19,519 bases of DNA, taken from Candidatus Egaibacter danicus (GTDB lineage: Bacteria > Pseudomonadota > Gammaproteobacteria > Burkholderiales > Burkholderiaceae). Of this stretch, positions 184-15,028 are shown one piece after another; position 1 is the first letter of the stretch, and each line of letters begins with the position of its first letter. The DNA lies in assembly GCA_011391115.1 (NCBI GenBank), contig JAABRC010000009.1, positions 1 through 19,519 on the forward strand. The letters are read 5' to 3'. The notes below the pieces were generated by a model. It was not told the origin of the DNA, did no database searches, and saw only the letters and a list, made by a program, of their open reading frames with translations. The position numbers and the translations under genes were made by a program.

Positions 184-1239
184 TCACAAACCAAGCATGC
201 GTTGAATTTGCGTCTTGTCTACCGAAGCCCCTGCAAAATCATCAAATGATTTGGTAGCCATGTTGATGATGTGTTTGCTGATGAACGGGGCGCCTTCGCG
301 CGCACCATCCTCCGGGTCTTTCAGGCAGCACTCCCACTCCAGCACAGCCCAGCCCCGGTAACCGTACTGCGTGAGTTTGCTGAAGATGGCGCCAAAATCA
401 ACCTGCCCGTCGCCGAGCGAGCGGAAGCGCCCAGCCCGGTTGACCCAGGATTCGAAGCCGCCGTAAACGCCCTGGCGCCCAGTTGGCCGGAACTCGGCAT
501 CCTTCACATGGAAGGCCTTGATGCGGTCGTGATACAGATCGATGTATTCCAGGTAGTCAAGTTGCTGCAGCACAAAATGACTGGGGTCATACAGCAGGCA
601 GGCGCGCTGGTGCTGCCCGACGGCATCCAGGAAGCGCTCATAACTCGCGCCATCACACAAGTCTTCGCCCGGGTGAACCTCGTAACAGACATCCACATCC
701 TCGGCATCGAAGGCGTCCAGAATCGGCTTCCAGCGGCGACCCAACTCGGTGAATGCGGTCTCGATCAGCCCTGCCGGACGCTGTGGCCAAGGGTAAAGGT
801 AAGGCCAGGCCAGTGCACCCGAGAAGGTGGCGTGGGCGTTGAGGCCCAGCCTGCGCGATGCCTTGGCTGCCAGCTTGAGCTGGCTCACCGCCCATTCCGT
901 GCGTGCGGCGGGCTTGCCGCGAACGTGCTCCGGGGCGAACCCGTCCATCTGCAGGTCGTATGCCGGGTGAACGGCCACCAGTTGCCCCTGCAGGTGGGTT
1001 GACAGCTCGGTCACGCTGATGCCGAACTCACCCAGCGTGCCCCGCACCTCGTCGCAGTAGGTGTCGCTCTCGGACGCTTTTTGAAGATCAAAGAGTTGCG
1101 GCGCGGTGGTCGGGATTTGGACACCTTTGTAGCCATGTCCTGCGGCCCAGCGGGCGATGGACGCCAGCGAATTGAACGGTGGCTTGTCGCCGACGAACTG
1201 TGCCAGAAAGATGGCCGGTCCCTTCATCGAATTTGACAT
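184..1239 (-). CDS. Sugar phosphate isomerase/epimerase family protein (TIM barrel), 351 aa
   Basis: Member of the xylose-isomerase-like TIM-barrel family (AP-endonuclease 2 fold), whose members isomerise, epimerise or dehydrate sugars and keto-sugars with a divalent metal. Likely metal and substrate ligands are E187 and H189 (CYEVHPGED), D218 and H221 (YDPSHF), H244 and D247 (FHVKDAEF) and E301 (LEWE). At 351 aa it is longer than the 250-290 aa typical of the family, like the members often found beside Gfo/Idh/MocA oxidoreductases. The start follows an AGGAG ribosome site 7 bases upstream. It is the last gene of the leftward operon, 15 bp after the oxidoreductase gene. There is no signal peptide, so it acts in the cytoplasm. 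The substrate cannot be read from the sequence; a keto-sugar or keto-glycoside made by the neighbouring dehydrogenases is the natural guess. Confidence 0.85.
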   Translation of the reverse strand: MSNSMKGPAIFLAQFVGDKPPFNSLASIARWAAGHGYKGVQIPTTAPQLFDLQKASESDTYCDEVRGTLGEFGISVTELSTHLQGQLVAVHPAYDLQMDGFAPEHVRGKPAARTEWAVSQLKLAAKASRRLGLNAHATFSGALAWPYLYPWPQRPAGLIETAFTELGRRWKPILDAFDAEDVDVCYEVHPGEDLCDGASYERFLDAVGQHQRACLLYDPSHFVLQQLDYLEYIDLYHDRIKAFHVKDAEFRPTGRQGVYGGFESWVNRAGRFRSLGDGQVDFGAIFSKLTQYGYRGWAVLEWECCLKDPEDGAREGAPFISKHIINMATKSFDDFAGASVDKTQIQRMLGL

Positions 1240-1254
1240 GGTGTACTCCTGTTA

Positions 1255-2424
1255 TCAGCGGGCGTTACGCCAGAGATTGCCGGCGTCGGCCTCACTCATG
1301 GCCGCAGGTTTGTCGATGGTGGGGGCGACGGTAATCGTGCTGCCCTCCGTGCCGGACTCCAGAATGGCATACATCACCTCCAGCACGTGCGAGGCCAGTT
1401 GCCCACTGGCACGATGCGGGGTGCCTTGCTGAATGGCGCTGGCCATGTCGGATACGCCCACGCAACGGTAGTTGGCCCGGCTGGGCCGCGAAGCGGGCCA
1501 GGCTGGTGACCGGTAATTGGCCTCGCCAAAATGCATGCTGGAAGAATCGTGGGCCTTCCACTCGCCGCCACGCTCCGTCACCTCGACCAGACCATCGTAG
1601 AAGTTGGGGTCGGGGTAACGCATCGAGCCTTCGCTGCCATACAGCTCAATTGGCGGATGACCATGGGCCCACACATCCCAGCTCATCGTGAAGTTGATCT
1701 CGGCCCCGCTGGCTGAAGTCAGCATGGCCATGACAGTGGTGGGTGTCTCGACCTTGATGTGGCTGCCATTGCGCGGGCCTGGTGCCGTTACCAGACGCTC
1801 GGCAAACCCCGTGGTGGCGCGGGCCTGCACACGGCTGATGGGACCGATCAGGTTGACCAGCGCCGCGAGGTAGTAAGGCGCCAGATCCAGCACGGGCCCG
1901 CCACCGGGTTTGTAGAAAAATTCAGGATCAGGGTGCCAGTGTTCGGGCCCGTGCGACATCATGAACAGCGAGCCGGCAATCACGCGGCCAATCGCCTGTT
2001 TGTCCACCAACTGGCGTGCCAACCTGCCTGATGCGCCCAGAAATGTGTCGGGGGCACCACCCAGCACCAGCTTGCGCTTTGCAGCCTCGGCCACCAGACG
2101 GCGGCTCTCATCGGGCGTGACGCACAGGGGCTTTTCTGAGAATACATGTTTGCCTGCGGTCAGCGCGGCATGGCTCACGGCGAAGTGGGCATTGGGCACG
2201 GTGAGGTTGATCACCAGATCAATGTCGCTGCGTTTGAGCAGGTCGTCCACGCTCAGTGCCTCGATGCCATATGCTTCGGCTTGCGCCTTGGCAGATTCGG
2301 GCCGCATGTCGGCGCAGGCAATGAGTTTGAGCCCCGCAAACAGCGGCATGTTGCGCATGTAGATGCCGGAGATGACACCACATCCAATGATTCCAACGCC
2401 CAGGTCATTCATGTTTTTGGCCAT
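1255..2424 (-). CDS. Gfo/Idh/MocA family oxidoreductase, 389 aa
   Basis: NAD(P)-dependent sugar or cyclitol dehydrogenase. The N-terminal Rossmann fold has the dinucleotide loop GIIGCG at residues 11-16, and the catalytic lysine is in the EKP motif (E97-K98-P99). The C-terminal alpha/beta domain carries PGGGPVLDLAPYY, where Tyr stands at the position usually held by the catalytic His of GxxxxDxGxHxxD; Tyr at this position is known in glucose-fructose oxidoreductase-type members. It is clearly paralogous to the protein at 8872-9969: both share APDTFLG, PGGGPxLD, ALVNLIGP and PHRASG/AHRASG blocks. An AGAGGA ribosome site lies 8 bases before the start. It sits 16 bp after one TIM-barrel isomerase gene and 15 bp before another, so it is co-transcribed with both. 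Likely role: oxidising an imported sugar or glycoside, or reducing a keto-intermediate. Confidence 0.9.
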   Translation of the reverse strand: MAKNMNDLGVGIIGCGVISGIYMRNMPLFAGLKLIACADMRPESAKAQAEAYGIEALSVDDLLKRSDIDLVINLTVPNAHFAVSHAALTAGKHVFSEKPLCVTPDESRRLVAEAAKRKLVLGGAPDTFLGASGRLARQLVDKQAIGRVIAGSLFMMSHGPEHWHPDPEFFYKPGGGPVLDLAPYYLAALVNLIGPISRVQARATTGFAERLVTAPGPRNGSHIKVETPTTVMAMLTSASGAEINFTMSWDVWAHGHPPIELYGSEGSMRYPDPNFYDGLVEVTERGGEWKAHDSSSMHFGEANYRSPAWPASRPSRANYRCVGVSDMASAIQQGTPHRASGQLASHVLEVMYAILESGTEGSTITVAPTIDKPAAMSEADAGNLWRNAR

Positions 2425-2440
2425 GTTCTGATCCTCTCAA

Positions 2441-3199
2441 TCAATTCCAGGTGGCCAGCGTGGCCATGGAGCGACGTACGAAACGTGAGGCGTCAGAGGG
2501 TTTGTCATGCTCCAGCACAAACAGCTTCACACCGATGCCTCGCATGGTGCTGATCAGCGAAGGCCAGTCCAAGGTTCCGTGGCCCACGTCGGCCCAGCCG
2601 TCTTCGTCCAGGCAGGTGCCCGGCGCGGCAATGTCCTTGATGTGGCACGCCTCGATGCGTGAGCCGTAACGCTTGAGCCAGGCTACCGGGTCTTCACCAC
2701 CACGAACTACCCAGGACACATCGACCTCCCATAACATGTCAGGGGCTTCGCTCAGCAGGATGTCCATCGGGATGGTGCCATCCGCCGTCTTCTTGAATTC
2801 AAAGTGGTGGTTGTGCCAGCCAAACCTCAAGCCCTCACCCGTTACCACCTTGCCAATGGCAGCGAGTTCCTTGCCGAATGCGCGCCAGCCCGCGACGTCC
2901 TTGTCGCGCTCATCCGGCGGCGGTGCAGGGGCATACATCGTTTTGATACCCAGCTCGCGGCAGGTACGGGACATGGCGGCGGCGTCATTGCGCAGTGACG
3001 GCATGCCCACGTGCGCACTGGGCGCCTGCATGCCGTGGCGAGCCAGGTTGTCTTTCAGTCGCGGGGCGTCGGCCAGCAGGCCGCCCCAAGGCTCAACGCT
3101 TTTGAAGCCCAGGCTGGCAAGCAGGTCAAACTGCGCTTCCAGAGGCTCGATCATGCGGGTGGAATACAGCTGGATGGAAGTGGTTTCTGAAGGTCTCAT
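2441..3199 (-). CDS. Sugar phosphate isomerase/epimerase family protein (TIM barrel), 252 aa
   Basis: Compact xylose-isomerase-like TIM-barrel protein of the size usual for keto-sugar epimerases, inosose dehydratases and YcjR-type 3-keto-glycoside epimerases. Visible active-site blocks are WHNHHFEF (128-135), WEVDVSW with D160, CHIKD with H186 and D189, and LEHD with E230. It is not close to the 351-aa protein at 184-1239, so the operon holds two different members of this fold. The start is chosen because TSIQLYSTRM matches the conserved first beta strand (QLYS.R) a few residues in; no good ribosome site is visible before it and the upstream 20 bases are pyrimidine-rich. It follows the regulator gene by 57 bp. 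Exact reaction unknown. Confidence 0.85.
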   Translation of the reverse strand: MRPSETTSIQLYSTRMIEPLEAQFDLLASLGFKSVEPWGGLLADAPRLKDNLARHGMQAPSAHVGMPSLRNDAAAMSRTCRELGIKTMYAPAPPPDERDKDVAGWRAFGKELAAIGKVVTGEGLRFGWHNHHFEFKKTADGTIPMDILLSEAPDMLWEVDVSWVVRGGEDPVAWLKRYGSRIEACHIKDIAAPGTCLDEDGWADVGHGTLDWPSLISTMRGIGVKLFVLEHDKPSDASRFVRRSMATLATWN

Positions 3200-3256
3200 G
3201 GTGTTTAAACGCTAGAAGGGAAAGGGTTGGTGAAAAGGTAAACACGGCGCGGCGCG

Positions 3257-4306
3257 TCAGGTGACGGGTACAGCCTCTGGGGCAGCGATGGGAGGATGCG
3301 GACCCGGCGCCAGCGAATGGCGCAACACCACTTGTGAATCAAAATTGCGCTGCACGCTCAGACCCGCGCCGTAACACAGGTTGATCAGGTGGCGGCAGGC
3401 GTTCGCGGCCACCTGGGTGGACGGAATGCGGATGGTGCTCAGGGCTGGTGAGGTGTAAGCGGCCAGTTCGGTATCGTCGTAACCCAGTACCGACAGGTCC
3501 TGCGGTATACGTATGCCGACGGCCTGAAGGCGTGACAGCGTGGCCATGGCAAGCACGTCCGAGACACAAAACAGTGCCGTGAAGGGCCGGTGCGCCATGC
3601 CGACAATCACGCCCGCCTTGTTCCACGCGTTGGTGAAGTTGAGCAGGCCGTCGATGATGAACTCGGCAGTGGGGGTCAACCCGTGCAGGCTGAGTTCGTG
3701 TTTGAAACCGGCCACGCGTGCTGTTACGTCCGGCCCGTGACGCAGGCTATGCATGGCAGCGATGTCCCGGTGCCCTTGTGCCAGTAGCGCCCGTGCCGCC
3801 AGCCGCCCTGCCGCTTCATGGTCCACCGAGAAACAGTGATCCTCCAGGCCTGCCACCATGCGGTTCATGACCACCAGATGACGGACACGCTTGCGCAACA
3901 GCAGCAAATCTTCGCCCAGCACGTAGCTGTCGACAGCCAGAATGCCATCACATTCCCGGTCAACCAGGAATCGGATACCGTTCAGGGATTTCTCGCTACG
4001 GGGGCCTTGTCCAAAATTGCTGGCAGCCACCATGTGGTGGTTGCCAGCACGCAATTCGCCATCAATGGCCTGCAGGATGGGCGCAAAAAAAGTACCTTCA
4101 AACGTGGGCACATATACACCCACCATGCCTTGACTTCTGGAAGACAGGGAACGGGCCACGCGTGAGGGGTGAAATTCCAGGGTGCGGACAGCCTCCTGCA
4201 CGCGCTCCAGCGCCACGGCTGACACCGCGCCTTTGCCCGAGATGGCCCGTGACGCGGTGCCTATGCCAACGCCTGCCAGCATCGCAACGTCTTTGATGGT
4301 GGCCAT
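3257..4306 (-). CDS. LacI-family transcriptional regulator, 349 aa
   Basis: The N-terminal LacI helix-turn-helix starts ATIKDVAMLAGVGIGTASRA and is followed by the hinge helix (VARSLSSR, about residues 51-58). A periplasmic-binding-protein-like effector domain fills the rest (GVYVPTF, LAVDSY, FCVSDVLAMA, SVLGYDDTELAAYTSPALST). The ATG at 4306 is preferred over an in-frame TTG at 4324: it gives the canonical MATIKDVA start and has AGGTGA 7 bases upstream. The gene is embedded in the operon it probably controls, 48 bp after the ABC ATPase. Its likely operator is the palindrome at 8700-8725. The usual logic of the family is repression relieved by a sugar ligand, here probably the transported sugar or an intermediate; that is inference. 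Confidence 0.92.
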   Translation of the reverse strand: MATIKDVAMLAGVGIGTASRAISGKGAVSAVALERVQEAVRTLEFHPSRVARSLSSRSQGMVGVYVPTFEGTFFAPILQAIDGELRAGNHHMVAASNFGQGPRSEKSLNGIRFLVDRECDGILAVDSYVLGEDLLLLRKRVRHLVVMNRMVAGLEDHCFSVDHEAAGRLAARALLAQGHRDIAAMHSLRHGPDVTARVAGFKHELSLHGLTPTAEFIIDGLLNFTNAWNKAGVIVGMAHRPFTALFCVSDVLAMATLSRLQAVGIRIPQDLSVLGYDDTELAAYTSPALSTIRIPSTQVAANACRHLINLCYGAGLSVQRNFDSQVVLRHSLAPGPHPPIAAPEAVPVT

Positions 4307-4354
4307 GCTTACGTCACCTGGCAATCGGGCCGACGGAATACATTACGCGTCTTG

Positions 4355-5437: not shown

Positions 5438-5443
5438 GCTTGA

Positions 5444-6403
5444 TTACCCTTTAACCGCGCCAGCGGCGATGCCGCGCACAAACCAGCGACCGGAAACAAA
5501 ATACACCGCGAGTGGCACCATGGAGGTCAGCAGCGTGGCCGCCATGTTGACGTTGTAGACCTTCTCGCCCTGCGTGGAGTTGATGATGTTGTTGAGCTGG
5601 ACCGTGATGGGGAAATTTTCACGTCCCGCAAAAATCAGCCCCAGGATGAAGTCGTTCCAGATGCCGGTGGTCTGCATGATGGTGGCCACTACAAAAATGG
5701 GCAGCGACATGGGCACCATCAGCTGGAAGTAAATCCGCCAGAAACCACCACCATCAATCCGCGCGGCCTTGAACAGCTCCACCGGCAAACCCGCGTAGTA
5801 GTTGCGAAACAGCAGTGTCATGATGGGCATGCCAAAAAAGGTGTGAATCAACACAATGTTCGGAATGGACTGGAACATGTTGATGGATGCAAACATGCGC
5901 ACCAGCGGGTAAATCATCACGGGGTAAGGAATGAAGGCCCCCAGCATCAGGATGCCGAAGAGCCAGTTGGCCCATTTCACCTTCCAGAACGACAGGGCGT
6001 AGCCATTCAGCGAGCCCATAAAAACCGACAGCAACAGTGAGGGCACCAGAATTTCCATCGAATTCCAGAAGCCCACCGCAATACCCTTGCAATCCAGCCC
6101 CGTGCACGCTGACGACCAGGCCTGCGCCCAGGGCTCAAAAGTAATGACAAGCGGAAGCGCAAAAATGTTGCCTTGCCGGATCTCATCCATGGGCTTGATG
6201 GACGTGATGCCCATCACATACAGCGGCAGCAGAAAGAATACGGCGGCACTGATCAGGAATGCATATATACCCAGCCGAGCGGGTGAAAAGAAAGCCGCAC
6301 GCGGGCGCTCCGTGCGGCGTGGCACGAGCTGGCTTTGCAGTGCGGCAGAGCCCAAAGTGGGGGGCATCGAAGGGGACACAGGGGGAGTGAGTGGGTGACT
6401 CAT
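5444..6403 (-). CDS. Sugar ABC transporter permease (MalG type), 319 aa
   Basis: Inner-membrane subunit of a CUT1 carbohydrate importer. A proline-rich cytoplasmic tail of about 45 residues precedes TM1 (YAFLISAAVFFLLPLYVMG), followed by the periplasmic segment SIKPMDEIRQG and five further predicted helices. The EAA loop that docks on the ATPase reads AARIDGGGFWRIYFQLMVP, close to consensus. The C-terminus (YFVSGRWFVRGIAAGAVKG) matches the MalG-family ending. The start overlaps the stop of the other permease gene by four bases (ATGA at 6400-6403), a classic coupled arrangement. The N-terminal tail is longer than in most MalG relatives. Confidence 0.95.
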   Translation of the reverse strand: MSHPLTPPVSPSMPPTLGSAALQSQLVPRRTERPRAAFFSPARLGIYAFLISAAVFFLLPLYVMGITSIKPMDEIRQGNIFALPLVITFEPWAQAWSSACTGLDCKGIAVGFWNSMEILVPSLLLSVFMGSLNGYALSFWKVKWANWLFGILMLGAFIPYPVMIYPLVRMFASINMFQSIPNIVLIHTFFGMPIMTLLFRNYYAGLPVELFKAARIDGGGFWRIYFQLMVPMSLPIFVVATIMQTTGIWNDFILGLIFAGRENFPITVQLNNIINSTQGEKVYNVNMAATLLTSMVPLAVYFVSGRWFVRGIAAGAVKG

Positions 6404-7296
6404 GAATGCCTCGCTGCGGCTTGTGAACGCGACCGCGCATACATCAGCGGCGCAATGATGATGAGTACCGTGACCAACATGGTGGTGGAAGCGGCAGATG
6501 CCAGCCCGATGTTTTGTCGTTCAAACAGGTTGTCCATGATGAATTTGGAGGGCACGTCGGTCGCGTCGCCCGGACCACCGTTGGTCATCGCGACCACGGC
6601 GTCATACACCTTGACGACTGAGATGGCCAACAAGACCACCGCCGTACTGACAGTTGCACCCAATTGCGGCAACACAATGCTGACGTAGTAGCGCCAGCGG
6701 GGAACGCCTTCAATGCGGGCTGCTTTCCAGAGCTCTTCGTCCACACCGCGCAAGCCGGCGAGCAAAATCGCCATGACCAGGCCGGCCGAATGCCATAGCA
6801 AGGCAATTACCACGCAATAAATGGCCATGTCCTGCGAGGCGATCCAGTCAAATCGGGCACTCTCCCAACCCCAGCTTTGCAATGAACGCTGTATGCCCAG
6901 GGTGGGGTTGAACATCCATTGCCAGACCACCCCGCAGGCCACAAATGAAATGGCGTAGGAGTACAGGTAAATGGTTCTAAAGACACCTTCCAGGCGCACC
7001 TTCTGGTCCACAAAAACTGCCAGCAAAAAGCCCAGAATCAGAGCGCTAGAGATAAAAAATACACCAAACTGCACCATGTGAACCATGTCGATGGTCCAGC
7101 GCTCATTGGTGAACAGCCTGACGTATTGTGTGATCCCCGCCCAATCGGACTTGGGCAACATTTTGGAACTGCTGAACGAGATGCGCACCGTCCACAGGAT
7201 GGAGGCCACGTAAGCGATCAACACCACCATACCCATGGGCAGCAACGCGGACTGCGCTGCCCAGGCCGTCTTGGGGCCTTTGCGTTGGTTCTTCAT
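6400..7296 (-). CDS. Sugar ABC transporter permease (MalF type), 298 aa
   Basis: First membrane subunit of the CUT1 importer, with about six transmembrane helices starting at LLPMGMVVLIAYVASILW. It has the EAA loop KAARIEGVPRWRYYVSIVLP and the MalF-type block VVKVYDAVVAMTNGGPGDAT. It is about the minimal size for the family, with none of the large periplasmic insertion of E. coli MalF. An AGAGGA ribosome site lies about 8 bases before the ATG. It follows the binding-protein gene after a 91-bp spacer that contains strong hairpins, and overlaps the next permease gene by four bases. Confidence 0.95.
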   Translation of the reverse strand: MKNQRKGPKTAWAAQSALLPMGMVVLIAYVASILWTVRISFSSSKMLPKSDWAGITQYVRLFTNERWTIDMVHMVQFGVFFISSALILGFLLAVFVDQKVRLEGVFRTIYLYSYAISFVACGVVWQWMFNPTLGIQRSLQSWGWESARFDWIASQDMAIYCVVIALLWHSAGLVMAILLAGLRGVDEELWKAARIEGVPRWRYYVSIVLPQLGATVSTAVVLLAISVVKVYDAVVAMTNGGPGDATDVPSKFIMDNLFERQNIGLASAASTTMLVTVLIIIAPLMYARSRSQAAARHS

Positions 7297-7315
7297 GAGA
7301 TGTCCTCTTGAACGA

Positions 7316-7380
7316 CGGGAAAAGCGGGTGCAAGCCCCGCTGCACCGGGTGCAACTGGCAGGTCCCGCCTGCCAGTTGCA
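7316..7380 (-). promoter_or_regulatory. Intercistronic stem-loops between binding-protein and permease genes
   Basis: A perfect 13-bp inverted repeat (7350-7362 with 7368-7380, 5-base loop) begins 7 bases after the stop codon of the binding-protein gene. A second potential stem pairs GGTGCA (7327-7332) with TGCACC (7341-7346) and, read on the minus strand, is followed by CGCTTTT. The arrangement recalls malE-malF, where intergenic hairpins stabilise the binding-protein message and lower permease expression. The likely role is differential expression by partial termination or 3'-end protection. The structure is seen directly; the role is inferred. Confidence 0.7.
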
Positions 7381-7387
7381 GCGGGCA

Positions 7388-8620
7388 TCAGTTGGATGTC
7401 AGTGCTTTGGCAAACAGGCCTTGTGCGTCTTCTACCTTCATGTCGGTGTTCCAGAACTTGGTGATCACGTCACTCACGTTGCCGAAAATATCCGGTGCCA
7501 TCAGCATGCTGGGGTCTGGTGTAGCGCGTGCCGGGTCTTTCAAGGCAATTACACCTGCCTGCGCGCAAATGTCCATGCCACTGGCATCGACATCGGGGCG
7601 AATGGGGATGGACCCCTTTTTCATGTTGAACGCCACCTGTGTGGCGGGTGACGTAATCACCTTGGCCAACAGTTGCTGGGCAGCTATGGCATCTTTGTTG
7701 CTGGTTTTAGGCAGCACAAAAACATCGCCGCTGACCATGTAGGGTGCCTTGGGCCCCCAACCCTGGAAGCAGCCAAACTCCTTGCCAGCCGTCTTGCCTG
7801 CTGCCAGAAATTCGCCCTTGGCCCAGTCGCCAACCGTCTGGAATCCAGCCTTGTCGGTCACCAACAACGCTGTGGTGTCATTCCAGCTGCGACCTGCTAC
7901 ACCCGCATCGGTGTAGCTACGCAGCTTTTTGAATTTTTCCAGCACCGTTTTGAAGGCTGGTGACTTGACCAGATTGGCATCTTTGTCGCCATAAAACTTC
8001 ATGTACATGTCGCGCCCACCCATATGAAGCAGCGTAGCGTTGAAGGTGGAGCGTTCGTAGGCCAATGTGCCGGATTGGGCAAAGGCGGTTTGCCCGGAAG
8101 CCTTGATTTTGTCCAGCGCCGTCCAGAACTCGGCTTCGGTTTTGGGCTCGGTCACACCAGCCTTGGCCAGCACCGCCTTGGAATACCAGAACCAGGTGCC
8201 GCTGTGAATATTGACCGGCACCGCGTAGTAGTGCCCATTTTTCTTGATGACGTTTTTAATGGGACCTGGCATCCATTGTTCCCAACCCTCTTTGGCGGCC
8301 ACTTCATCTACATCGGCCAAAAGGCCCGCGTCGATCAACTCATGGTATTGCTTGGAGGTATTGAACTGTGACGCGGTGGGCGGGTTACCGCCTGCAATCC
8401 GGTTCAGCGCTGCGGCGCGAGCGTTATCCCCGCCAGCAATGGCGTTGTCCACCCACTGGCCACCGGCCTTGTTGTAGCCTTCCGCCAGTTGTTTGAGGGC
8501 TGCAGACTCCCCGCCAGACGTCCACCAGTGAATGACTTCAGCCTTCTGGGCCAGTGCGGGGGAAGAGATGCCCAGACTGGCAATCAGTGTTGCCAGCAGG
8601 GACATTTTGATGTTTTTCAT
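7388..8620 (-). CDS. Extracellular sugar-binding protein of ABC transporter, 410 aa
   Basis: Periplasmic solute-binding protein (family 1, COG1653 type) that delivers sugar to the MalF/MalG-type permeases. The signal peptide is MKNIKMSLLATLIASLGISS followed by PALAQ, with cleavage after ALA. The mature protein begins KAEVIHWWTSGGESAALKQL, the block characteristic of glucose/mannose-type binding proteins such as Pseudomonas GtsA, but I would not assign the ligand from this. The ATG at 8620 is chosen because it gives a proper signal peptide and has GGAG 9 bases upstream; the in-frame ATG at 8656 would add 12 hydrophobic residues. It is the first gene of the leftward operon, facing the divergent control region. 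Confidence 0.94.
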   Translation of the reverse strand: MKNIKMSLLATLIASLGISSPALAQKAEVIHWWTSGGESAALKQLAEGYNKAGGQWVDNAIAGGDNARAAALNRIAGGNPPTASQFNTSKQYHELIDAGLLADVDEVAAKEGWEQWMPGPIKNVIKKNGHYYAVPVNIHSGTWFWYSKAVLAKAGVTEPKTEAEFWTALDKIKASGQTAFAQSGTLAYERSTFNATLLHMGGRDMYMKFYGDKDANLVKSPAFKTVLEKFKKLRSYTDAGVAGRSWNDTTALLVTDKAGFQTVGDWAKGEFLAAGKTAGKEFGCFQGWGPKAPYMVSGDVFVLPKTSNKDAIAAQQLLAKVITSPATQVAFNMKKGSIPIRPDVDASGMDICAQAGVIALKDPARATPDPSMLMAPDIFGNVSDVITKFWNTDMKVEDAQGLFAKALTSN

Positions 8621-8645
8621 GACTTGTCTCCACAAGAATAGTTGG

Positions 8646-8673
8646 AATATGGCCAATTCATTTCCTGCCGCAA
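8646..8673 (-). promoter_or_regulatory. Candidate sigma70 promoter of the leftward transport operon
   Basis: On the minus strand TTGCGG (8673-8668) and CATATT (8651-8646) are separated by 16 bases. Transcription would start near 8639, giving a leader of about 20 bases before the ATG at 8620. The match is moderate, and other combinations in this AT-rich stretch are possible. Confidence 0.35.
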
Positions 8674-8699
8674 TGCGTCATGCAGATAGCTGATTTGGT

Positions 8700-8725
8700 C
8701 TGAATTGGAACCGTTTCCAATTCAG
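8700..8725. promoter_or_regulatory. Candidate LacI-family operator (26-bp palindrome)
   Basis: The left half CTGAATTGGAAC and the right half GTTTCCAATTCAG flank a central CpG; 12 of 13 base pairs across the dyad match. CpG-centred palindromes with GGAA/TTCC arms are the usual operator type of LacI/GalR regulators. It lies in the divergent region between the transport operon and the plus-strand catabolic operon, so one regulator (3257-4306) could control both. It sits upstream of the candidate minus promoter rather than on it, so the exact mechanism is unclear. Confidence 0.75.
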
Positions 8726-8821
8726 CGGTTATTGAACAGCATCAAGCCGTGCCAACCCATCGGGGTGAACCCTAATACACCGAATGGGGTTTGTACCAAT
8801 CTCACTTTTGCAGAAGGCACG

Positions 8822-8835
8822 TACTATTTAGTTCG
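8822..8835 (+). promoter_or_regulatory. Possible TetR-type site and -10 element before the plus-strand operon
   Basis: The bases ACTATTTAGTTCG (8823-8835) match the sequence ACTAACTAGTTCG upstream of dctQ (15811-15823) at 11 of 13 positions. TACTAT (8822-8827) could serve as a -10 box, but no convincing -35 was found. The distance to the ATG at 8872 suits a promoter-proximal operator. A low-complexity coincidence cannot be excluded. Confidence 0.35.
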
Positions 8836-8871
8836 ACCAAAAAATTAACTTGAGCCCAAGGTAACGTTCTT

Positions 8872-9969
8872 ATGGACAAAGTTGGCATTGGCATCATTGG
8901 CTGCGGCAATATCAGTGATGCCTACCTCAAGGCCATTGTGGGTTTTCCCTTGCTGGAGGTTCGGGGTGTGGCGGATATCCGCCCTGAAGCGGCGCTAGCG
9001 GCTGCGGCTAAACACGGGCTAAAGGCGCAAACGATGGACGCGCTGTTATGCGACGATGACATCGAAATTGTGGTCAACCTCACCATTCCTGCGGTGCATG
9101 TGGAAGTAGGCTTGCAGGTGTTGGCTGCTGGCAAACATGTGCACTCTGAAAAGCCGCTGGGGCTGACGGTGGCGGATGCCAGCCGCTTGATCGAGATGGC
9201 AGAGCGGCATCAACTGCGCGTAGGTTGTGCACCGGATACTTTTCTGGGCGGTGGTCACCAGACGTGCCGGACCCTGATCGACGATGGTGAAATGGGCAGC
9301 GTGGTGGCCGGAACGGCGTTTTTCATGTGTCCCGGACACGAGCGCTGGCACCCCAATCCAGCCTTCTACTACCAGCCAGGTGGTGGCCCCATGCTGGACA
9401 TGGGGCCGTACTACATCACGGCGCTGGTCAATCTGATCGGGCCTGTAGCCCGCGTCTCGGGCATCACCTCACGCAGCCGGACGCAGCGTCTGATCACCAG
9501 CGAACCGCTCAAGGGGCAGTTGATGGATGTCACGGTGGCCACGCATGTGGCTGGCACGCTGGAATTTGCCAGCGGCGCGGTGGTGTCAATTGCCACCAGT
9601 TTTGATGTACCCAAACACACCTGCAAACCGATTGAACTGCACGGTACGCTGGCCAGCCTGCAGGTGCCTGATCCCAACCGCTTCGGTGGTCCGATTGCCA
9701 TGGCGCAGCCGGGGCAGGACTGGGTGGACCAGCCCACCACACACGGCTACTGGGATGGCAACTTCCGCAGCATTGGGGTGGCTGACATGGCCCATGCCCT
9801 GCGCTCCGGGCGTGCCCACCGCGCCTCGGGCGAACTGGCGTTACACGCGCTGGAGGTCATGGAGGCGTTCCAGGTGTCATCAGATTCCGGTCGACATGTG
9901 CAGATTGCATCGCGCCCGCCCCGCCCGGCTCCCTTGCCTGCCAGTTTGATGCCTGGCCTTCTGGATTGA
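8872..9969 (+). CDS. Gfo/Idh/MocA family oxidoreductase, 365 aa
   Basis: NAD(P)-dependent dehydrogenase with Rossmann loop GIIGCG (7-12), catalytic E93-K94-P95 in HSEKP, and the substrate-domain block PGGGPMLDMGPYYITALVNL. As in its paralogue at 1255-2424, Tyr replaces the usual catalytic His. The two proteins share APDTFLG, the HWHP/RWHP region, ALVNLIGP and RASG...L..HxLEVM, so they arose by duplication and probably act on related substrates, perhaps in opposite directions. First gene of the plus-strand operon, 251 bp from the divergent binding-protein gene. An AAGG ribosome site lies about 11 bases before the ATG. The C-terminus is proline-rich and without known function. Cytoplasmic. Confidence 0.92.
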   Translation: MDKVGIGIIGCGNISDAYLKAIVGFPLLEVRGVADIRPEAALAAAAKHGLKAQTMDALLCDDDIEIVVNLTIPAVHVEVGLQVLAAGKHVHSEKPLGLTVADASRLIEMAERHQLRVGCAPDTFLGGGHQTCRTLIDDGEMGSVVAGTAFFMCPGHERWHPNPAFYYQPGGGPMLDMGPYYITALVNLIGPVARVSGITSRSRTQRLITSEPLKGQLMDVTVATHVAGTLEFASGAVVSIATSFDVPKHTCKPIELHGTLASLQVPDPNRFGGPIAMAQPGQDWVDQPTTHGYWDGNFRSIGVADMAHALRSGRAHRASGELALHALEVMEAFQVSSDSGRHVQIASRPPRPAPLPASLMPGLLD

Positions 9970-10006
9970 GCGCAGACTCTTACCTCAACAACACACAGGA
10001 AACCAT

Positions 10007-10648
10007 GTGAAAAAAGCATTGATCGTCTGGGGCGGATGGCATGGCCACGAACCCGAACAGGGCTCGCAGATTGTGCGCGACATTCTCCAAAACAATGGTT
10101 TCGAAGTTCGTGTTGAGACGCAGACGGCCGCTTTTGTCGACCCGGCATTGGCGCAGCTGGATCTGATTGTGCCGATCTACACCATGTCCAAGATCGAGAA
10201 GGAGGAATGTGCCAATCTTACCGCAGCAGTGCGTTCCGGCGTGGGGCTGGCGGGCTTTCATGGGGGCATGTGTGACTCGTTCCGCGACTCGGTTGAGTAC
10301 CAGTTCATGACGGGCGGGCAGTGGGTCGCACACCCCGGTGGTGTGATTGTTTACCGCGTCAACATCACCAGGCCGGAGGACCCGGTGATGGCTGGCTTGT
10401 CAGACTTCGACTATCGCTCCGAGCAGTACTACATGCATGTAGACCCTTCCAACAAGGTGCTGGCCACTACCACCTTCAGCGGCGAACACGCCGAATGGAT
10501 CACCGGTGTGGTCATGCCGGTTGCGTGGAAGCGTCGCCATGGCCAGGGCCGGGTTTTTTACAGTTCACTGGGCCATGTGTCGGCAGAGTTTCAGGTGCCG
10601 CAAATGCGGACGATTTTTGAGCGCGGCATGTTGTGGGCGGCACGCTAA
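10007..10648 (+). CDS. ThuA-like domain protein, 213 aa
   Basis: Single-domain protein of the ThuA family, related in fold to class I glutamine amidotransferases but lacking the Cys nucleophile. Blocks seen: KKALIVWGGWHGHEPEQ at the N-terminus, GVGLAGFHGGMCDSF (about 78-92), GGQWVAHPGG, YYMHVDP, and GRVFYSSLGH near the end. In rhizobia ThuA works with the dehydrogenase ThuB in trehalose/sucrose use through 3-keto-disaccharides. Here the gene lies between two Gfo/Idh/MocA dehydrogenase genes (37 bp and 31 bp away), the same functional pairing. The start is GTG: CAGGAAACC precedes it, and the overlapping ATG at 10005 is out of frame and meets TGA at once. The reaction is not established for the family at large. 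Confidence 0.88.
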   Translation: MKKALIVWGGWHGHEPEQGSQIVRDILQNNGFEVRVETQTAAFVDPALAQLDLIVPIYTMSKIEKEECANLTAAVRSGVGLAGFHGGMCDSFRDSVEYQFMTGGQWVAHPGGVIVYRVNITRPEDPVMAGLSDFDYRSEQYYMHVDPSNKVLATTTFSGEHAEWITGVVMPVAWKRRHGQGRVFYSSLGHVSAEFQVPQMRTIFERGMLWAAR

Positions 10649-10679
10649 TTGGCACGTTAACAACCCGAAAGCAAATGAG

Positions 10680-11879
10680 ATGACGATTGAAGCTGGTAAC
10701 GTGACGAAGGGAGTGACCACAAACGACAAACCCCGCCGATTGCGCCTGGGCATGGTCGGGGGGGGTGAGGGGGCTTTTATCGGTGCTGTGCACCGCATCG
10801 CCCTGCGCCTGGATGACCACTACGAGTTGGTGGCCGGGGCGCTGAGTGCCGATGCCGCGCGTAGCCATCGCTCGGGTGCCGCGCTGGGTCTGGACCCGCA
10901 CCGGGTTTACGCCAGCTACCAGGACATGGCGCAGGCAGAGCACCAGCGGCCGGACCCGATTGACGCGGTGGTGATCGTCACCCCCAACCACATGCACGCG
11001 CCGGTGGCGGAAGTGTTTTTGCGCGCGGGTTTTCATGTAATTTGCGACAAACCACTGACCACCACTCTGGCGCAGGCGGTGGCGCTGCGCGATTTGGCGC
11101 GCACTTGTGGCAGGGTGTTTTGTGTAACCCACAACTACACGGGTTACCCGCTGATGCGCCATGCCCGCGAGATGGTGGCCACAGGCGTGCTGGGGGACAT
11201 TAGGCTGGTGCAGGTAGAGTATCCGCAAGAGTGGCTGGCCGAGCCCATTGAACAAACGGGCCAGAAACAGGCCGAGTGGCGCACCGACCCCGCCCGCTCC
11301 GGCGCGGGTGGTTGCCTGGGCGACATTGGTACACACGCCTACAACCTGGCAGACTTCGTCACCGGCTTGAAACTTGACCAGCTATGCGCCGAACTGACGA
11401 CGTTTGTGCCTGGTCGGCGACTCGATGACAACGTCAACATGCTGCTGCGTTACCAGGGCGGTGCCCGTGGCATGTTGTGGGCCAGCCAGGTTGCGCCGGG
11501 CCATGAAAACGGTCTGCGTTTGCGGGTGTATGGCACCCTGGGCGGTGTCGAATGGGTTCAGGCTGAGCCCAATGTGCTGATTCATTCGCCGCTGAACGAG
11601 TCGCGCCGCCTGATTACCCGGGGCTCTACGGCAGCGTGTGCAGCGGCAGCCCGTGTGACCCGTATCCCGTCAGGCCATCCTGAGGGTTATCTGGAAGGGT
11701 TTGCCAACATTTATACCGAGGCGGCACTGGCGATTCGCGCGGTGAATGCGGGTCGGCCCATCCCTGCCGAGGTGCATTTCCCCACGATGGACGACGGTGT
11801 CAAAGGCATGGCGTTCATTGAGGCGGCCGTCAAGTCCTCAGCCGCTGGTGCGGTCTGGGTGACACCTGACTTCGTCTAA
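10680..11879 (+). CDS. Gfo/Idh/MocA family oxidoreductase, 399 aa
   Basis: NAD(P)-dependent dehydrogenase of a different subgroup from the two PYY paralogues. Seen: LRLGMVGGGEGAFIGAVHR (21-39) as the dinucleotide-binding strand and loop, TPNHMHA, catalytic K124 in CDKPLTTT, and the canonical GDIGTHAYNLADF with D215, H219 and D225. So it keeps the His that the paralogues lack. The ATG at 10680 is chosen as the first in-frame start after the thuA-like stop; upstream in-frame codons run inside that gene in another frame. The ribosome site is weak. It is 31 bp after the ThuA-like gene and 16 bp before the GH43 gene. Possible substrate: the free sugar or glycoside handled by those enzymes. Confidence 0.9.
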   Translation: MTIEAGNVTKGVTTNDKPRRLRLGMVGGGEGAFIGAVHRIALRLDDHYELVAGALSADAARSHRSGAALGLDPHRVYASYQDMAQAEHQRPDPIDAVVIVTPNHMHAPVAEVFLRAGFHVICDKPLTTTLAQAVALRDLARTCGRVFCVTHNYTGYPLMRHAREMVATGVLGDIRLVQVEYPQEWLAEPIEQTGQKQAEWRTDPARSGAGGCLGDIGTHAYNLADFVTGLKLDQLCAELTTFVPGRRLDDNVNMLLRYQGGARGMLWASQVAPGHENGLRLRVYGTLGGVEWVQAEPNVLIHSPLNESRRLITRGSTAACAAAARVTRIPSGHPEGYLEGFANIYTEAALAIRAVNAGRPIPAEVHFPTMDDGVKGMAFIEAAVKSSAAGAVWVTPDFV

Positions 11880-11895
11880 ACCACTTACTGCACCA

Positions 11896-13518
11896 ATGAT
11901 TACCAACCCCATCCTGCCGGGCTTCAACCCCGATCCTTCCATTTGCCGCGTTGGTGAAGACTATTACATCGCCACCTCCACGTTTGAGTGGTACCCCGGC
12001 GTACAGATTCACCATTCGCGTGATCTGGTCAACTGGACGCTGGTCAAGCGCCCGCTGGACCGCGCGTCACAGCTCGACATGCGCGGCAACCCCGATTCCT
12101 GTGGCATCTGGGCCCCCTGTCTGTCCCACGCTGACGGGTTGTTCTGGCTGGTGTACACCGATGTCAAGCGCTACAGCGGCTTCAAGGATACGCACAACTA
12201 CATCGTGACCGCACCGTCCATTGACGGGCCGTGGAGCGACCCCATTCACATCAACTCGTCGGGGTTCGATCCGTCGTTGTTCCACGATACGGACGGCCGC
12301 AAGTACTTCATGAACATGTACTGGAACCAGCGCGCTGAAGCACCTGGCGGCCACCAGGTCACGCCCAGTTTTCTGGGCATCTTGCTGCAGGAGTGGGATG
12401 CTGACAATGGAAAGCTCGTCGGTGAAACCAAAAACGTGTTTCGCGGCAGCTACCTTGGTCTGGTCGAGGGGCCCCATGTGTTCAAGCGCAACGGCTGGTA
12501 CTACATGACCCTGGCTGAAGGCGGCACGGGCTACAACCATGCCGTCACCATGGCGCGTTCGCGCAGCATCTGGGGGCCGTATGAGATGCACCCCCGCGTA
12601 CATCTAATGACCTCCAAGGACACGCCCGATGCGCCCCTGCAGCGTGTGGGTCACGGCCAGTATGTGGAGACCCCGGACGGTGAGGTCTACCACACCCATT
12701 TGTGCTCACGGCCTTTGCCCGGCACGCGGTTGTCGCCCCTGGGGCGCGAAACAGCCATCCAGAAATGCGTGTGGCGCGACGACGACTGGCTGTACCTGGA
12801 GAGTTCCGAAGGCGGGCCGATGGTTGCCAGTGTTCACGTGCCAGCACCCCATTTTCAGGCAGTGGCGGAGCCTGCCCAGGCCAGCCACAACACGTTCACG
12901 GGCAGTGAATTGCCGCTGGAATTCCAGTGGCTGCGCACGCCTTATCCAGCGCGTCTGTTCAGCCTGACCGGCAAGGCCCTGCGCCTGCATGCGCGCGAGT
13001 CGGTCGGTAGCTGGTTCGAGCAGTCTTTGGTGGCCCGGCGGCAGGAGCACTTTGTGTTCCGTGCTGAAACCGAACTGGACTTTGAACCCCAGACCCATCA
13101 GCAGCTGGCTGGCCTGACGCTGTATTACAACCAGTTCAAGTACCACGCCTTGGGTGTGACATGGCATGAGGTGCTGGGCCGCTGCCTGACCCTCGTCAGC
13201 TGCGAGGCCAACTACCCGGATGCCAAGCCCACCCATCCCCTGCCGGCGCTGATTCAGTTGCCCGCCCAAGGGAAAATTGGCTTGGCCTGCGAGGTAGACC
13301 ATGGCCAGCTTCGCCTGCAGTACCGCATTGCCAATGACTGGATTGATGTGGGTCCGGTGCTGGATGCTAGTCTGATCTCGGACGAGGCCGGCCGGGGTGT
13401 ACACGGCTCATTCACCGGGGCCTTTGTGGGCATGCTGGCGTTTGATCTTTCAGGTGGGGCGCAGCCGGCCGATTTTTACCGCTTCAGCTACATTCCCCAC
13501 AATGTTGCCGCATCCTGA
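11896..13518 (+). CDS. Glycoside hydrolase family 43 beta-xylosidase/alpha-L-arabinofuranosidase, 540 aa
   Basis: Five-bladed beta-propeller hydrolase acting on xylo-oligosaccharides or arabinosides, close in layout to XynB/SXA-type two-domain beta-xylosidases. The catalytic set is visible: base D13 (GFNPDPS), pKa-tuning D125 (SGFDPSLF) and general acid E191 (LVEGPHVF). After about residue 320 comes the C-terminal beta-sandwich that helps close the active site, ending FYRFSYIP. There is no signal peptide, so it works in the cytoplasm on imported short oligosaccharides, which agrees with the ABC importer in the divergent operon. The length is normal for the two-domain type. No good ribosome site precedes the ATG. 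It lies between a dehydrogenase gene (16 bp) and the aldose epimerase gene (21 bp). Confidence 0.93.
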   Translation: MITNPILPGFNPDPSICRVGEDYYIATSTFEWYPGVQIHHSRDLVNWTLVKRPLDRASQLDMRGNPDSCGIWAPCLSHADGLFWLVYTDVKRYSGFKDTHNYIVTAPSIDGPWSDPIHINSSGFDPSLFHDTDGRKYFMNMYWNQRAEAPGGHQVTPSFLGILLQEWDADNGKLVGETKNVFRGSYLGLVEGPHVFKRNGWYYMTLAEGGTGYNHAVTMARSRSIWGPYEMHPRVHLMTSKDTPDAPLQRVGHGQYVETPDGEVYHTHLCSRPLPGTRLSPLGRETAIQKCVWRDDDWLYLESSEGGPMVASVHVPAPHFQAVAEPAQASHNTFTGSELPLEFQWLRTPYPARLFSLTGKALRLHARESVGSWFEQSLVARRQEHFVFRAETELDFEPQTHQQLAGLTLYYNQFKYHALGVTWHEVLGRCLTLVSCEANYPDAKPTHPLPALIQLPAQGKIGLACEVDHGQLRLQYRIANDWIDVGPVLDASLISDEAGRGVHGSFTGAFVGMLAFDLSGGAQPADFYRFSYIPHNVAAS

Positions 13519-13539
13519 TGGGCCTTGAAAGCTTTGCTG

Positions 13540-14616
13540 ATGACGACCGCTAACCCGACATCTGTCCATCCCACCCCTGGGCCACGGTTGCCGCAGGTGT
13601 TTGGTCTGGCCAATGGGGGTACCCATATCATGGTGACTGACCGCGGGGCCAGTTGGCTGTCGTGTGAGTTGGACATGGGGCCAGATAGTCGGCGCGAGAT
13701 TCTACTGGGGCATCAAGAGCCCTTCATGTATGGCTCCCAGCCGGGTTATCTCGGCGCTATTGTGGGGCGGTATGCCAACCGTATTGCCGGTAGCCGGTTT
13801 GTCGACGCCACAGGCCAGACCCATGTGCTCACGCCAAACGAAGGAGAGGTGCAATTGCATGGCGGGCTGGACGGTTTTGACAAACGTGACTGGCAGGTGT
13901 TGTCCCGGGGACCCAGTCGGCTCGTGCTCGGGCTGGAATCGCCTGCCGGAGACCAGGGCTTTCCGGGCAACCTGCAGGCGCAGGTGACTTATGAAGTTGC
14001 GCTGGATGGTGCGGTCACGATCCGTTTCGACACCCGCGTGGATGCAGTGTGTCCGGTCAACCTGTCCAGCCACGGCTACTTCAACCTGGATGGCGCCGAT
14101 GCACAGAGCGACTTTGGGGACGTGCTGGACCACACGCTGTGGATTGCGTCGAAGCACTACCTGCCCATCGATGCACGCCTTATCCCCACGGGCGAGCTGG
14201 CCCCGGTTCAGGGAACACCATTCGATTTTTCAACGGCGCAGCGACTGCGTGAGGCGCTGGCCCAAAGCCATCCCCAACTGTCCTTGGGCGGCGGTGGCCT
14301 GGATCATTGCTTTGTGCTGGACGCAACAGGCCAGGCGGGCGCCCGGCCCGTGGCAAAACTGTGCGCTGGGGACGGCAGTCTGACCATGACGTTAACCACC
14401 AGTTACCCGGGCCTGCAGTGTTACAGCGGCAACTATCTCACCGGCCTGCCCGGACGCAATGGTCGCCCCTTGACGCGCCATGCCGGGCTGGCCCTGGAGC
14501 CTGAGTACTTCCCGGACAGCCCTAACCACCCGGAATGGCCGCAGGCCAGTTGCTGGCAGCAGCCTGGTGAGCTGCGATCGCACTTCATGTGTTTTGCGTT
14601 CGACAGATATCTATAG
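13540..14616 (+). CDS. Aldose 1-epimerase (galactose mutarotase family), 358 aa
   Basis: Interconverts alpha and beta anomers of free aldoses such as those released by the GH43 enzyme. Signature residues (numbered from the ATG): NR in GRYANRIAG (80-81), H107 in LHGG, the proposed acid H178 in SSHGYFNLDG, D255 in LDHCF, and the proposed base E320 in ALEPEYFPDSPNHP. The length matches the family. An in-frame TTG at 13525 would add five residues; the ATG at 13540 is preferred though neither has a strong ribosome site. Last gene of the plus-strand operon; only a weak 5-bp hairpin followed by TTTC (14637-14653) lies downstream. It could be called galM, but sugar specificity is not shown. Confidence 0.92.
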   Translation: MTTANPTSVHPTPGPRLPQVFGLANGGTHIMVTDRGASWLSCELDMGPDSRREILLGHQEPFMYGSQPGYLGAIVGRYANRIAGSRFVDATGQTHVLTPNEGEVQLHGGLDGFDKRDWQVLSRGPSRLVLGLESPAGDQGFPGNLQAQVTYEVALDGAVTIRFDTRVDAVCPVNLSSHGYFNLDGADAQSDFGDVLDHTLWIASKHYLPIDARLIPTGELAPVQGTPFDFSTAQRLREALAQSHPQLSLGGGGLDHCFVLDATGQAGARPVAKLCAGDGSLTMTLTTSYPGLQCYSGNYLTGLPGRNGRPLTRHAGLALEPEYFPDSPNHPEWPQASCWQQPGELRSHFMCFAFDRYL

Positions 14617-14962: not shown

Positions 14963-14993
14963 TGACTTTATTTGCAGGGGAAAGCTGTGCCGC

Positions 14994-15023: not shown

Positions 15024-15028
15024 GAAAA

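What the first reader, a model, noticed from the sequence alone, without database searches (positions are those of the whole stretch)
184..14616. Divergent sugar cluster that may run an oxidation/keto-glycoside route rather than a kinase route
Seen: two TIM-barrel sugar isomerases, three Gfo/Idh/MocA dehydrogenases, a ThuA-like protein, a cytoplasmic GH43 hydrolase, an aldose epimerase, a CUT1 importer and a LacI regulator, with no kinase, xylose isomerase or aldolase. Known: the E. coli ycj cluster (ABC transporter, LacI regulator, Gfo/Idh/MocA 3-dehydrogenase YcjS, isomerase-fold epimerase YcjR) converts gulosides to glucosides through 3-keto-glycosides. Rhizobial thuAB act through 3-keto-trehalose. 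Inference: this cluster oxidises an imported glycoside, rearranges or cleaves the keto-form with the TIM-barrel and ThuA proteins, and uses GH43 for a xylosidic or arabinosidic bond. The combination with GH43 is not one I know to be described.
Basis: partly seen in the sequence, partly recalled or inferred. Interest (0 to 1): 0.7.

Follow-up and report, generated by a model that had tools for sequence, protein, structure and literature searches.

The report
Keto-glycoside cleavage locus with β-xylosidase
This bacterial gene cluster probably imports plant-type glycosides and breaks them by oxidising, eliminating, hydrating and re-reducing a sugar instead of simply hydrolysing it, with a conventional xylose-releasing enzyme alongside; the chemistry is known, the mix of enzymes is a variant of it.

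Summary
The genes are as described. The two 'TIM-barrel isomerases' are homologues of the A. tumefaciens O-glycoside β-eliminase (OGE; PDB 8bvk, eight of eight named active-site residues kept) and 2-hydroxy-3-keto-glucal hydratase (HYD; PDB 8ro4, 580 bits). DH3 resembles the Gfo reductase beside that hydratase (58%). So the core looks like the known oxidation-elimination-hydration-reduction pathway, with a Gfo/Idh/MocA dehydrogenase (DH1) in place of flavin-dependent GlycDH: of 48 OGE genes, 27 have DH1 near, 10 GlycDH, 0 both, 11 neither. DH2, a DH1 paralogue, pairs with ThuA. GH43 is β-xylosidase-like. A LacI-type palindrome lies between the divergent operons. The combination recurs: Roseinatronobacter has OGE-DH1-GH43-HYD-DH3; Paracoccus adds DH2-ThuA and xylA but lacks the epimerase. 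The route would replace a glycosidase, not a kinase. The ycj and classical thuAB comparisons fail by sequence. No activity was tested and the host genome is not held. Most novel reading: ThuA is a second 3-keto-glycoside-cleaving enzyme.

The parts
184..1239 (-). HYD: 2-hydroxy-3-keto-glycal hydratase homologue
   Evidence: 580 bits to PDB 8ro4 '2-hydroxy-3-keto-glucal hydratase'; 68% to the gene in the A. tumefaciens OGE operon (L043)
1255..2424 (-). DH1: Gfo/Idh/MocA dehydrogenase, predicted glycoside 3-dehydrogenase partner of OGE
   Evidence: Pfam; DH1-type gene near 27 of 48 OGE genes, never together with GlycDH; K98, D180, Y184 kept in 47 of 47 DH1/DH2 homologues
2441..3199 (-). OGE: O-glycoside beta-eliminase homologue (Mn2+ TIM barrel)
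   Evidence: E 3.5e-42, 36% to PDB 8bvk; eight named AtOGE active-site residues all kept
3257..4324 (-). LacI-family regulator
   Evidence: Pfam LacI + Peripla_BP_3; 47% relatives at the same place in L129, L130
4355..5437 (-). CUT1 importer ATPase (MalK type)
   Evidence: Pfam ABC_tran, OB_MalK, TOBE_2
5444..6403 (-). CUT1 permease (MalG type)
   Evidence: Pfam BPD_transp_1
6400..7296 (-). CUT1 permease (MalF type)
   Evidence: Pfam BPD_transp_1
7388..8656 (-). sugar-binding protein of the CUT1 importer (true start probably about 8620)
   Evidence: Pfam SBP_bac_8 and SBP_bac_1
8700..8725 (.). LacI-type operator palindrome between the divergent operons
   Evidence: two perfect 11-nt arms, 4 nt apart; arm length reached in 4 of 5000 single-base shuffles of the gap; LacI-type sites upstream of SBP in 11 of 25 loci, window included
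8872..9969 (+). DH2: paralogue of DH1 beside ThuA, predicted second glycoside 3-dehydrogenase
   Evidence: 42% to DH1; falls in the clade of ThuA-adjacent dehydrogenases
10007..10648 (+). ThuA-family protein, predicted to act on the DH2 product
   Evidence: Pfam ThuA 167.6 bits; of 12 loci chosen by ThuA alone, DH2 lies beside it in 4, a DH1-like gene in 1, neither in 7; of the 5 with 57% identity or more, 4 have DH2
10674..11879 (+). DH3: predicted 3-keto-aldose reductase
   Evidence: 527.6 bits to PDB 3v5n, an unassigned oxidoreductase; in 69 of 80 HYD loci; 58% to the Gfo of the A. tumefaciens OGE operon (L043)
11896..13518 (+). GH43 beta-xylosidase-like hydrolase, no signal peptide evident by eye
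   Evidence: 529 bits to a solved xylan beta-1,4-xylosidase 1yrz; GH43 + GH43_C2
13525..14616 (+). aldose 1-epimerase (GalM type)
   Evidence: Pfam Aldose_epim 217.3 bits; NCBIfam PRK11055 364 bits, over its cut-off; TIGR02636 325.7, under its cut-off

Best explanation
A LacI-controlled importer brings in a beta-linked glycoside that carries xylose. Inside the cell DH1 oxidises C3 of a glycosyl unit with NAD+; OGE removes the aglycone or next sugar by Mn2+-assisted beta-elimination, giving a 2-hydroxy-3-keto-glycal; HYD adds water to give the 3-keto-aldose; DH3 reduces it to the free aldose with NAD(P)H. The sum is a redox-neutral hydrolysis. GH43 releases beta-xylose by ordinary hydrolysis and GalM interconverts anomers. 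DH2 with ThuA is a second C3-oxidation/cleavage pair. Shown: gene content, homology, conserved active-site residues, a palindrome between the operons, recurrence. Inferred: each reaction, NAD+ use, substrate, direction of flux, LacI binding there, and the link of GH43 to the same substrate.
For: HYD 580 bits to 8ro4 and OGE 36% to 8bvk with 8 of 8 named residues. A. tumefaciens OGE, HYD and Gfo steps: PMC10628242 (sections read; hydration there called preliminary). Gfo/Idh/MocA enzymes do the first and last step in the levoglucosan pathway (PMC7676230 and PMC10066097, passages). OGE near DH1 27, GlycDH 10, both 0, neither 11 of 48; in the set chosen by HYD alone, 14 GlycDH, 3 DH1, 3 neither, 0 both of 20. 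HYD with DH3 in 69 of 80. OGE tree: the window and the A. tumefaciens OGE lie on one side of a 31-row split, 100/100. Same combination with GH43 in L094 and L137. Palindrome between the operons.
Against: No activity tested. HYD, OGE and DH1 are in one operon and DH3 in the other, whereas HYD and DH3 mostly sit together elsewhere. GH43 is a minority partner: within 10 kb of OGE in 4 of 48 OGE cases, window included (L093, L094, L137), and in an even sample of 385 genomes of one class 7 have such a GH43: none lay by OGE, one lay by DH2-ThuA. C3 regiochemistry of DH1 and DH2 rests on neighbourhood, not on a close characterised homologue: best NCBIfam hits are far below cut-off. 14 of 25 loci scanned, Paracoccus L137 among them, show no LacI-type site upstream of SBP.
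Confidence: 0.72

Rival explanations
1. Two separate substrate modules under one regulator: OGE-DH1-HYD-DH3 handles a beta-glucoside, while GH43-epimerase (with DH2-ThuA) handles xylo-oligosaccharides. They share the importer or are induced together but do not act on one molecule.
For: Each module occurs without the other in the stretches fetched: OGE-DH1-HYD-DH3 without GH43 (L013, L038, L054, L117, L118); GH43-DH2-ThuA without OGE (L154 with xylA and xylB, L178).
Against: They are joined, with a palindrome between them, in the window; joined in Paracoccus L137; and GH43 lies inside the run of OGE genes in L094, between DH1 and HYD.
Confidence: 0.3
2. A YcjR/YcjS-like route: C3 oxidation, epimerisation of the keto-glycoside, re-reduction, no cleavage.
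Against: OGE has no match to YcjR at 1e-3, HYD only 40 residues, whereas OGE and HYD match the eliminase and hydratase, OGE with its active-site residues kept. No phosphorylase among the Pfam hits, unlike ycj.
Confidence: 0.06
3. Oxidation of free pentoses at C1 (lactone route, Weimberg or Dahms type).
For: Distant similarity to XylDh_Gfo6 (DH3 74.1 bits, cut-off 350).
Against: No lactonase, IlvD-type dehydratase or aldolase family among the Pfam hits of 17 proteins; two relatives have xylA or xylA + xylB instead; HYD and OGE would be left without a role.
Confidence: 0.05
4. Inositol or inosose catabolism (IolE/IolG-like).
For: Best NCBIfam hits of HYD and OGE are IolE (63.7 and 40.2 bits) and of DH1 and DH2 IolG (63.8 and 59.7).
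Against: All are far below the cut-offs of 290 and 355 bits; the solved-structure matches to hydratase and eliminase are much stronger.
Confidence: 0.03

Closest known systems
A. tumefaciens O-glycoside pathway GlycDH-OGE-HYD-Gfo (Bitter et al. 2023, PMC10628242)
   Same: OGE, HYD and the final Gfo reductase are homologues; the OGE of an A. tumefaciens MAG (L043) lies on the window's side of the tree split.
   Different: No GMC flavoenzyme GlycDH in the window; a Gfo/Idh/MocA dehydrogenase stands beside OGE instead. Extra CUT1 importer, GH43, DH2-ThuA.
Levoglucosan pathway LgdA-LgdB1-LgdB2-LgdC (Kuritani et al. 2020, PMC7676230; Gfo/Idh/MocA membership stated in PMC10066097)
   Same: LacI + ABC importer + two TIM barrels + two Gfo/Idh/MocA dehydrogenases; NAD+-linked first step (passages).
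   Different: No window dehydrogenase reaches the LevoglcsnDh cut-off (60.4, 52.5, 102.4 against 650 bits).
E. coli ycj cluster
   Same: Importer, LacI-type regulator, Gfo/Idh/MocA dehydrogenases.
   Different: YcjR is not a near relative of OGE or HYD; ycj has two phosphorylases and no GH43.
thuEFGKAB of rhizobia and Agrobacterium (title seen in a reference list; paper not held)
   Same: ThuA Pfam family; importer; keto-sugar theme.
   Different: Window ThuA has no BLAST match at 1e-3 to the ThuA in an A. tumefaciens MAG's MalK-ThuA-ThuB arrangement; that ThuB is nearer DH3 (30% over 269) than DH2. That this is the thu operon I infer from gene order.
GH43 beta-xylosidases (1yrz, 2exh)
   Same: Full-length two-domain match; D13, D125, E191 (checked) line up with 2exh D15, D128, E187 (counted by hand; their catalytic role recalled).
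   Different: Sits with keto-glycoside genes.

Membership tests
A. tumefaciens OGE pathway | 2-hydroxy-3-keto-glucal hydratase | tested here: met
   580 bits to 8ro4 over 348 residues
A. tumefaciens OGE pathway | OGE with the metal ligands and catalytic His134 | tested here: met
   E39, H66, H132, H134, E161, D163, H189, E233 all kept
A. tumefaciens OGE pathway | Gfo reductase next to HYD | tested here: inconclusive
   a 58% relative (DH3) is present, but in the divergent operon, not next to HYD
A. tumefaciens OGE pathway | flavin-dependent GlycDH as first enzyme | tested here: not met
   no match in the window when searched with the GMC protein of L043 (GMC by Pfam)
A. tumefaciens OGE pathway | catalytic activities and C3 regiochemistry | not testable with these tools
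   needs purified enzymes
levoglucosan Lgd pathway | levoglucosan dehydrogenase LgdA | tested here: not met
   best 102.4 bits against cut-off 650
E. coli ycj pathway | YcjR-type 4-epimerase | tested here: not met
   no OGE match; 40-residue HYD match, E 4e-4
classical thuAB | orthologous ThuA and ThuB | tested here: not met
   no BLAST match of ThuA; ThuB nearer DH3 than DH2 (reference operon inferred from gene order)
ThuA family PF06283 | Pfam gathering score | tested here: met
   167.6 against 33.4 bits
GH43 beta-xylosidase | GH43 plus C-terminal GH43_C2 domain, full-length match to solved beta-xylosidases | tested here: met
GH43 beta-xylosidase | beta-xylosidase activity | not testable with these tools
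   needs assay

The most novel reading that the evidence does not exclude
ThuA of this subfamily is itself a 3-keto-glycoside-cleaving enzyme, probably an eliminase for a linkage OGE does not take, so that the window holds two parallel oxidation-elimination pairs (DH1-OGE and DH2-ThuA) feeding one hydratase and one reductase. Basis: DH1 and DH2 are one subfamily with the same K-D-Y residues; 26 of 47 sit by OGE, 18 by ThuA, none by both, 3 by neither; and in an A. tumefaciens MAG, HYD-DH3 follow the importer genes opposite ROK-DH2-ThuA with no OGE in that 19.9 kb (L135). Against: that genome has OGE elsewhere (L043, L131); only 3 of 20 DH2-ThuA loci have HYD and DH3 within 10 kb; chosen by ThuA alone, only 4 of 12 loci have DH2 beside it.
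Probability: 0.33. Interest if true: 0.68.

Novelty: new variant of a known kind. Interest (0 to 1): 0.46.

Why it matters
It extends the non-hydrolytic route for glycoside breakdown to loci that use a Gfo/Idh/MocA dehydrogenase with OGE and sometimes couple it to a beta-xylosidase, and it suggests a concrete, testable role for ThuA, a family whose reaction I did not find stated in the passages I read. In plasmid records that I opened these genes are annotated only as 'sugar phosphate isomerase/epimerase' and 'Gfo/Idh/MocA family oxidoreductase' (for example), so the function is easily missed.

Tried and rejected
Epimerase (ycj) reading: rejected on sequence. Levoglucosan and inositol readings: scores far below cut-offs. 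Classical thuAB: rejected on sequence. A DH2-ThuA fusion protein (P0025) looked like linkage evidence, but by eye its ThuA part is garbled in places, as from frame errors, so I did not use it. ThuA structure: model poor (mean pLDDT 61.8); Foldseek's only hit under 1e-3 was a ThuA-like protein 4jqs; it says nothing on mechanism. The window's own genome is not held; a 99% match to its ThuA is named Rhodoferax sp. MAG (P0122). The promoter scan of the divergent gap found none. A LacI-operator pattern search over the window gave 2 matches (one site, both strands) against 1.00 expected by chance, so the pattern alone is not significant; the case rests on arm length, place and recurrence, and the recurrence count had no shuffled control. 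Genome co-occurrence tests: GH43 with OGE 3 genomes (of 7 and 10 in 385, p 0.0004; 2 of 6 and 9 in 384 without the chosen centre, p 0.007); OGE with ThuA 4 (p 5e-5; 3 without the centre, p 0.0007); GH43 with ThuA 2 (p 0.012; 1 without the centre, p 0.13). These are confounded by lifestyle and relatedness, and in none of the three genomes with GH43 and OGE did the two lie together. DH2 at E 1e-100 is rare in the order of Variovorax (1 of 399 genomes, a 48% match); at E 1e-80 it is in 6 of 101 genomes of that genus, with no GH43 match in the stretches fetched.

Row handling: five duplicate loci (L111, L120, L124, L132, L133), E. coli L186 and loci under 9 kb were left out of the tallies; one search kept the duplicate L111. 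The plasmid and genome OGE sets were chosen with the window's OGE (or DH2, DH1) and so lean towards DH1-type loci; the 80-locus HYD set does not. From the plasmid search listings I opened only a part: 25 regions by hit of the OGE, DH1, DH2 and GH43 searches, chosen by hand for spread.
Full report
What is there. The window holds two divergent operons. Minus strand: SBP, MalF, MalG, MalK, LacI, OGE, DH1, HYD. Plus strand: DH2, ThuA, DH3, GH43, aldose epimerase. Gaps within operons are -4 to 91 bp. A TetR gene and a TRAP transporter follow and look separate. A 99% match to the window's ThuA is labelled Rhodoferax sp. MAG (P0122), so the host is probably a Rhodoferax-like Burkholderiales; no genome of it is held.

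The core pathway. HYD matches PDB 8ro4, '2-hydroxy-3-keto-glucal hydratase', with 580 bits over the full length. OGE matches PDB 8bvk, the A. tumefaciens O-glycoside beta-eliminase, at 36% identity, and keeps all eight residues that the paper names around the metal and the catalytic His134. Across the 48 OGE genes found here, window included, each of these residues is kept in 45 to 48. PMC10628242 (abstract, introduction, sections 7 and 8 and discussion read) describes the A. tumefaciens operon: GlycDH (a flavoenzyme) oxidises C3, OGE eliminates, HYD hydrates (evidence called preliminary there), and a Gfo oxidoreductase reduces 3-keto-glucose. In L043, an A. tumefaciens MAG, genes of these four kinds lie together: HYD and Gfo are 68% and 58% identical to the window's HYD and DH3, OGE 36%, and a GMC oxidoreductase follows.

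A different first enzyme. The window has no match to that GMC protein. Instead DH1, a Gfo/Idh/MocA protein, follows OGE. In the 80 loci chosen by HYD alone, OGE lies within 8 kb of HYD in 20: with GlycDH in 14, with DH1 in 3, with neither in 3, with both in 0. Over the loci of 9 kb or more, 48 OGE genes have DH1 within 4.5 kb in 27, GlycDH in 10, both in 0, neither in 11 (this set leans towards window-like OGE). In the OGE tree the window and the A. tumefaciens OGE lie on one side of a 31-row split (100/100) that holds 27 DH1-linked genes, that one GlycDH-linked gene and 3 with neither, so the partner of OGE seems to have been exchanged there. Gfo/Idh/MocA enzymes at both ends of such a pathway are known from levoglucosan use (PMC7676230 and PMC10066097, passages), but no window dehydrogenase is a levoglucosan dehydrogenase by score.

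The second pair. DH2 is 42% identical to DH1. In 47 DH1/DH2 proteins the residues K98, D180, Y184 are invariant; 26 lie by OGE, 18 by ThuA, 0 by both, 3 by neither. The two sets fall mostly in different parts of the tree (2 changes; none of 500 shuffles as low); the exceptions are three OGE-linked proteins (L129, L130, L134) on the ThuA side and one ThuA-linked (L181) on the OGE side. In 20 loci with an adjacent DH2-ThuA pair, 4 have GH43 within 10 kb (window, L137, L154, L178) and 3 have HYD and DH3 (window, L137, L135). When loci are chosen by ThuA alone the link is weaker: DH2 lies beside it in 4 of 12, a DH1-like gene in 1, neither in 7; of the 5 ThuA with 57% identity or more, 4 have DH2. 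In L135 the minus-strand run MalF-MalG-MalK-HYD-DH3 faces ROK-DH2-ThuA with no OGE in the stretch, though the genome has OGE elsewhere (L043, L131). ThuA thus seems to stand where OGE stands in the other set. This is the basis for the novel case; it is inference from gene order only. The ThuA and ThuB of a MalK-ThuA-ThuB arrangement, taken as the classical pair, are different proteins.

GH43 and xylose. GH43 is full-length similar to solved beta-xylosidases (529 bits to 1yrz). Relatives of this GH43 lie near xylA and xylB matches in L154 and L196 and near xylB in L195. Paracoccus sp. AK26 plasmid pAK3 carries LacI, importer, OGE, DH1, HYD, DH3 and, convergent, GH43, MalK, DH2, ThuA, xylA: the window's enzyme families except the epimerase, plus xylose isomerase. 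Roseinatronobacter sp. S2 has importer-OGE-DH1-aldo/keto reductase-GH43-HYD-DH3 in one run. S. meliloti Ak57 pSymB has OGE-DH1-aldo/keto reductase and GH43 about 7 kb on, with TRAP genes between. So the combination recurs, and a xylose-containing substrate is likely. Against a tight link: in an even sample of 385 genomes of one class (that of a Devosia MAG), 7 have this GH43; one lies by DH2-ThuA, none by OGE, and one (L198) near a distant ThuA-like protein (25%).

Regulation. The gap between the operons holds CTGAATTGGAA-ccgt-TTCCAATTCAG at 8700-8725, a LacI-type palindrome; arms this long arose in 4 of 5000 single-base shuffles. Scanned for TGnnAnCGnTnnCA from 500 bp before to 150 bp after the SBP start, 11 of 25 loci have a site: the window and L130 (whose LacI is 47% identical) with TGGAA-type arms, nine others with sites like TGTAATCGATTACA; 14 have none, among them L129 and Paracoccus L137. 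No shuffled control was run for that count; with even base composition eight fixed bases give about 0.01 per locus. One site between divergent operons suggests joint control by LacI.

How it works. Inferred sequence: import; C3 oxidation by DH1; beta-elimination by OGE; hydration by HYD; reduction by DH3; anomer exchange by the epimerase; xylose release by GH43; a second oxidation/cleavage pair DH2-ThuA. The outcome is free aldoses, so isomerase and kinase are still needed downstream.

Novelty. Paper searches in the held library listed no paper whose title or abstract start describes OGE with a Gfo/Idh/MocA dehydrogenase and GH43; most subscription papers are not held, among them two later ones on this chemistry seen only as references (Kastner 2024, Nasseri 2024), and PMC10628242 mentions increasingly diverse operon organisation in a supplementary figure that I could not see. 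The chemistry is known; the gene set is a variant. Interest is moderate, higher if ThuA proves to be a cleaving enzyme.

Noticed in passing
window 14886-18805: TetR_C_29-type regulator followed by a TRAP transporter (DctQ, DctM, DctP); probably a separate transport unit.
   Followed up: partly
L001-L080: 43 of 80 HYD loci carry HYD + DH3 but no OGE, DH1, DH2, GlycDH, GH43 or ThuA match within 8 kb: other, unidentified first steps may feed the same hydratase.
   Followed up: no
L131: In an A. tumefaciens MAG an OGE-DH1-importer cluster lies convergent with a MalK-ThuA-ThuB-like operon.
   Followed up: partly
L093, L094, L114, L116, L118: An aldo/keto reductase (annotated mgrA in L093 and L094; Pfam Aldo_ket_red) recurs in OGE-DH1 loci (57-72% to that of L094); role unknown, no match in the window.
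   Followed up: no
L014, L024, L025, L034, L067, L075: Distant ThuA-like proteins (22-24%) lie near HYD and DH3 in six Chitinophaga loci.
   Followed up: no
P0025: Database protein of 589 aa that reads as DH2 joined to ThuA; the ThuA part looks frame-shifted, so probably a sequencing artefact.
   Followed up: partly
plasmid hits H132, H133: HYD homologues (68%) also occur on two Klebsiella pneumoniae plasmids.
   Followed up: no
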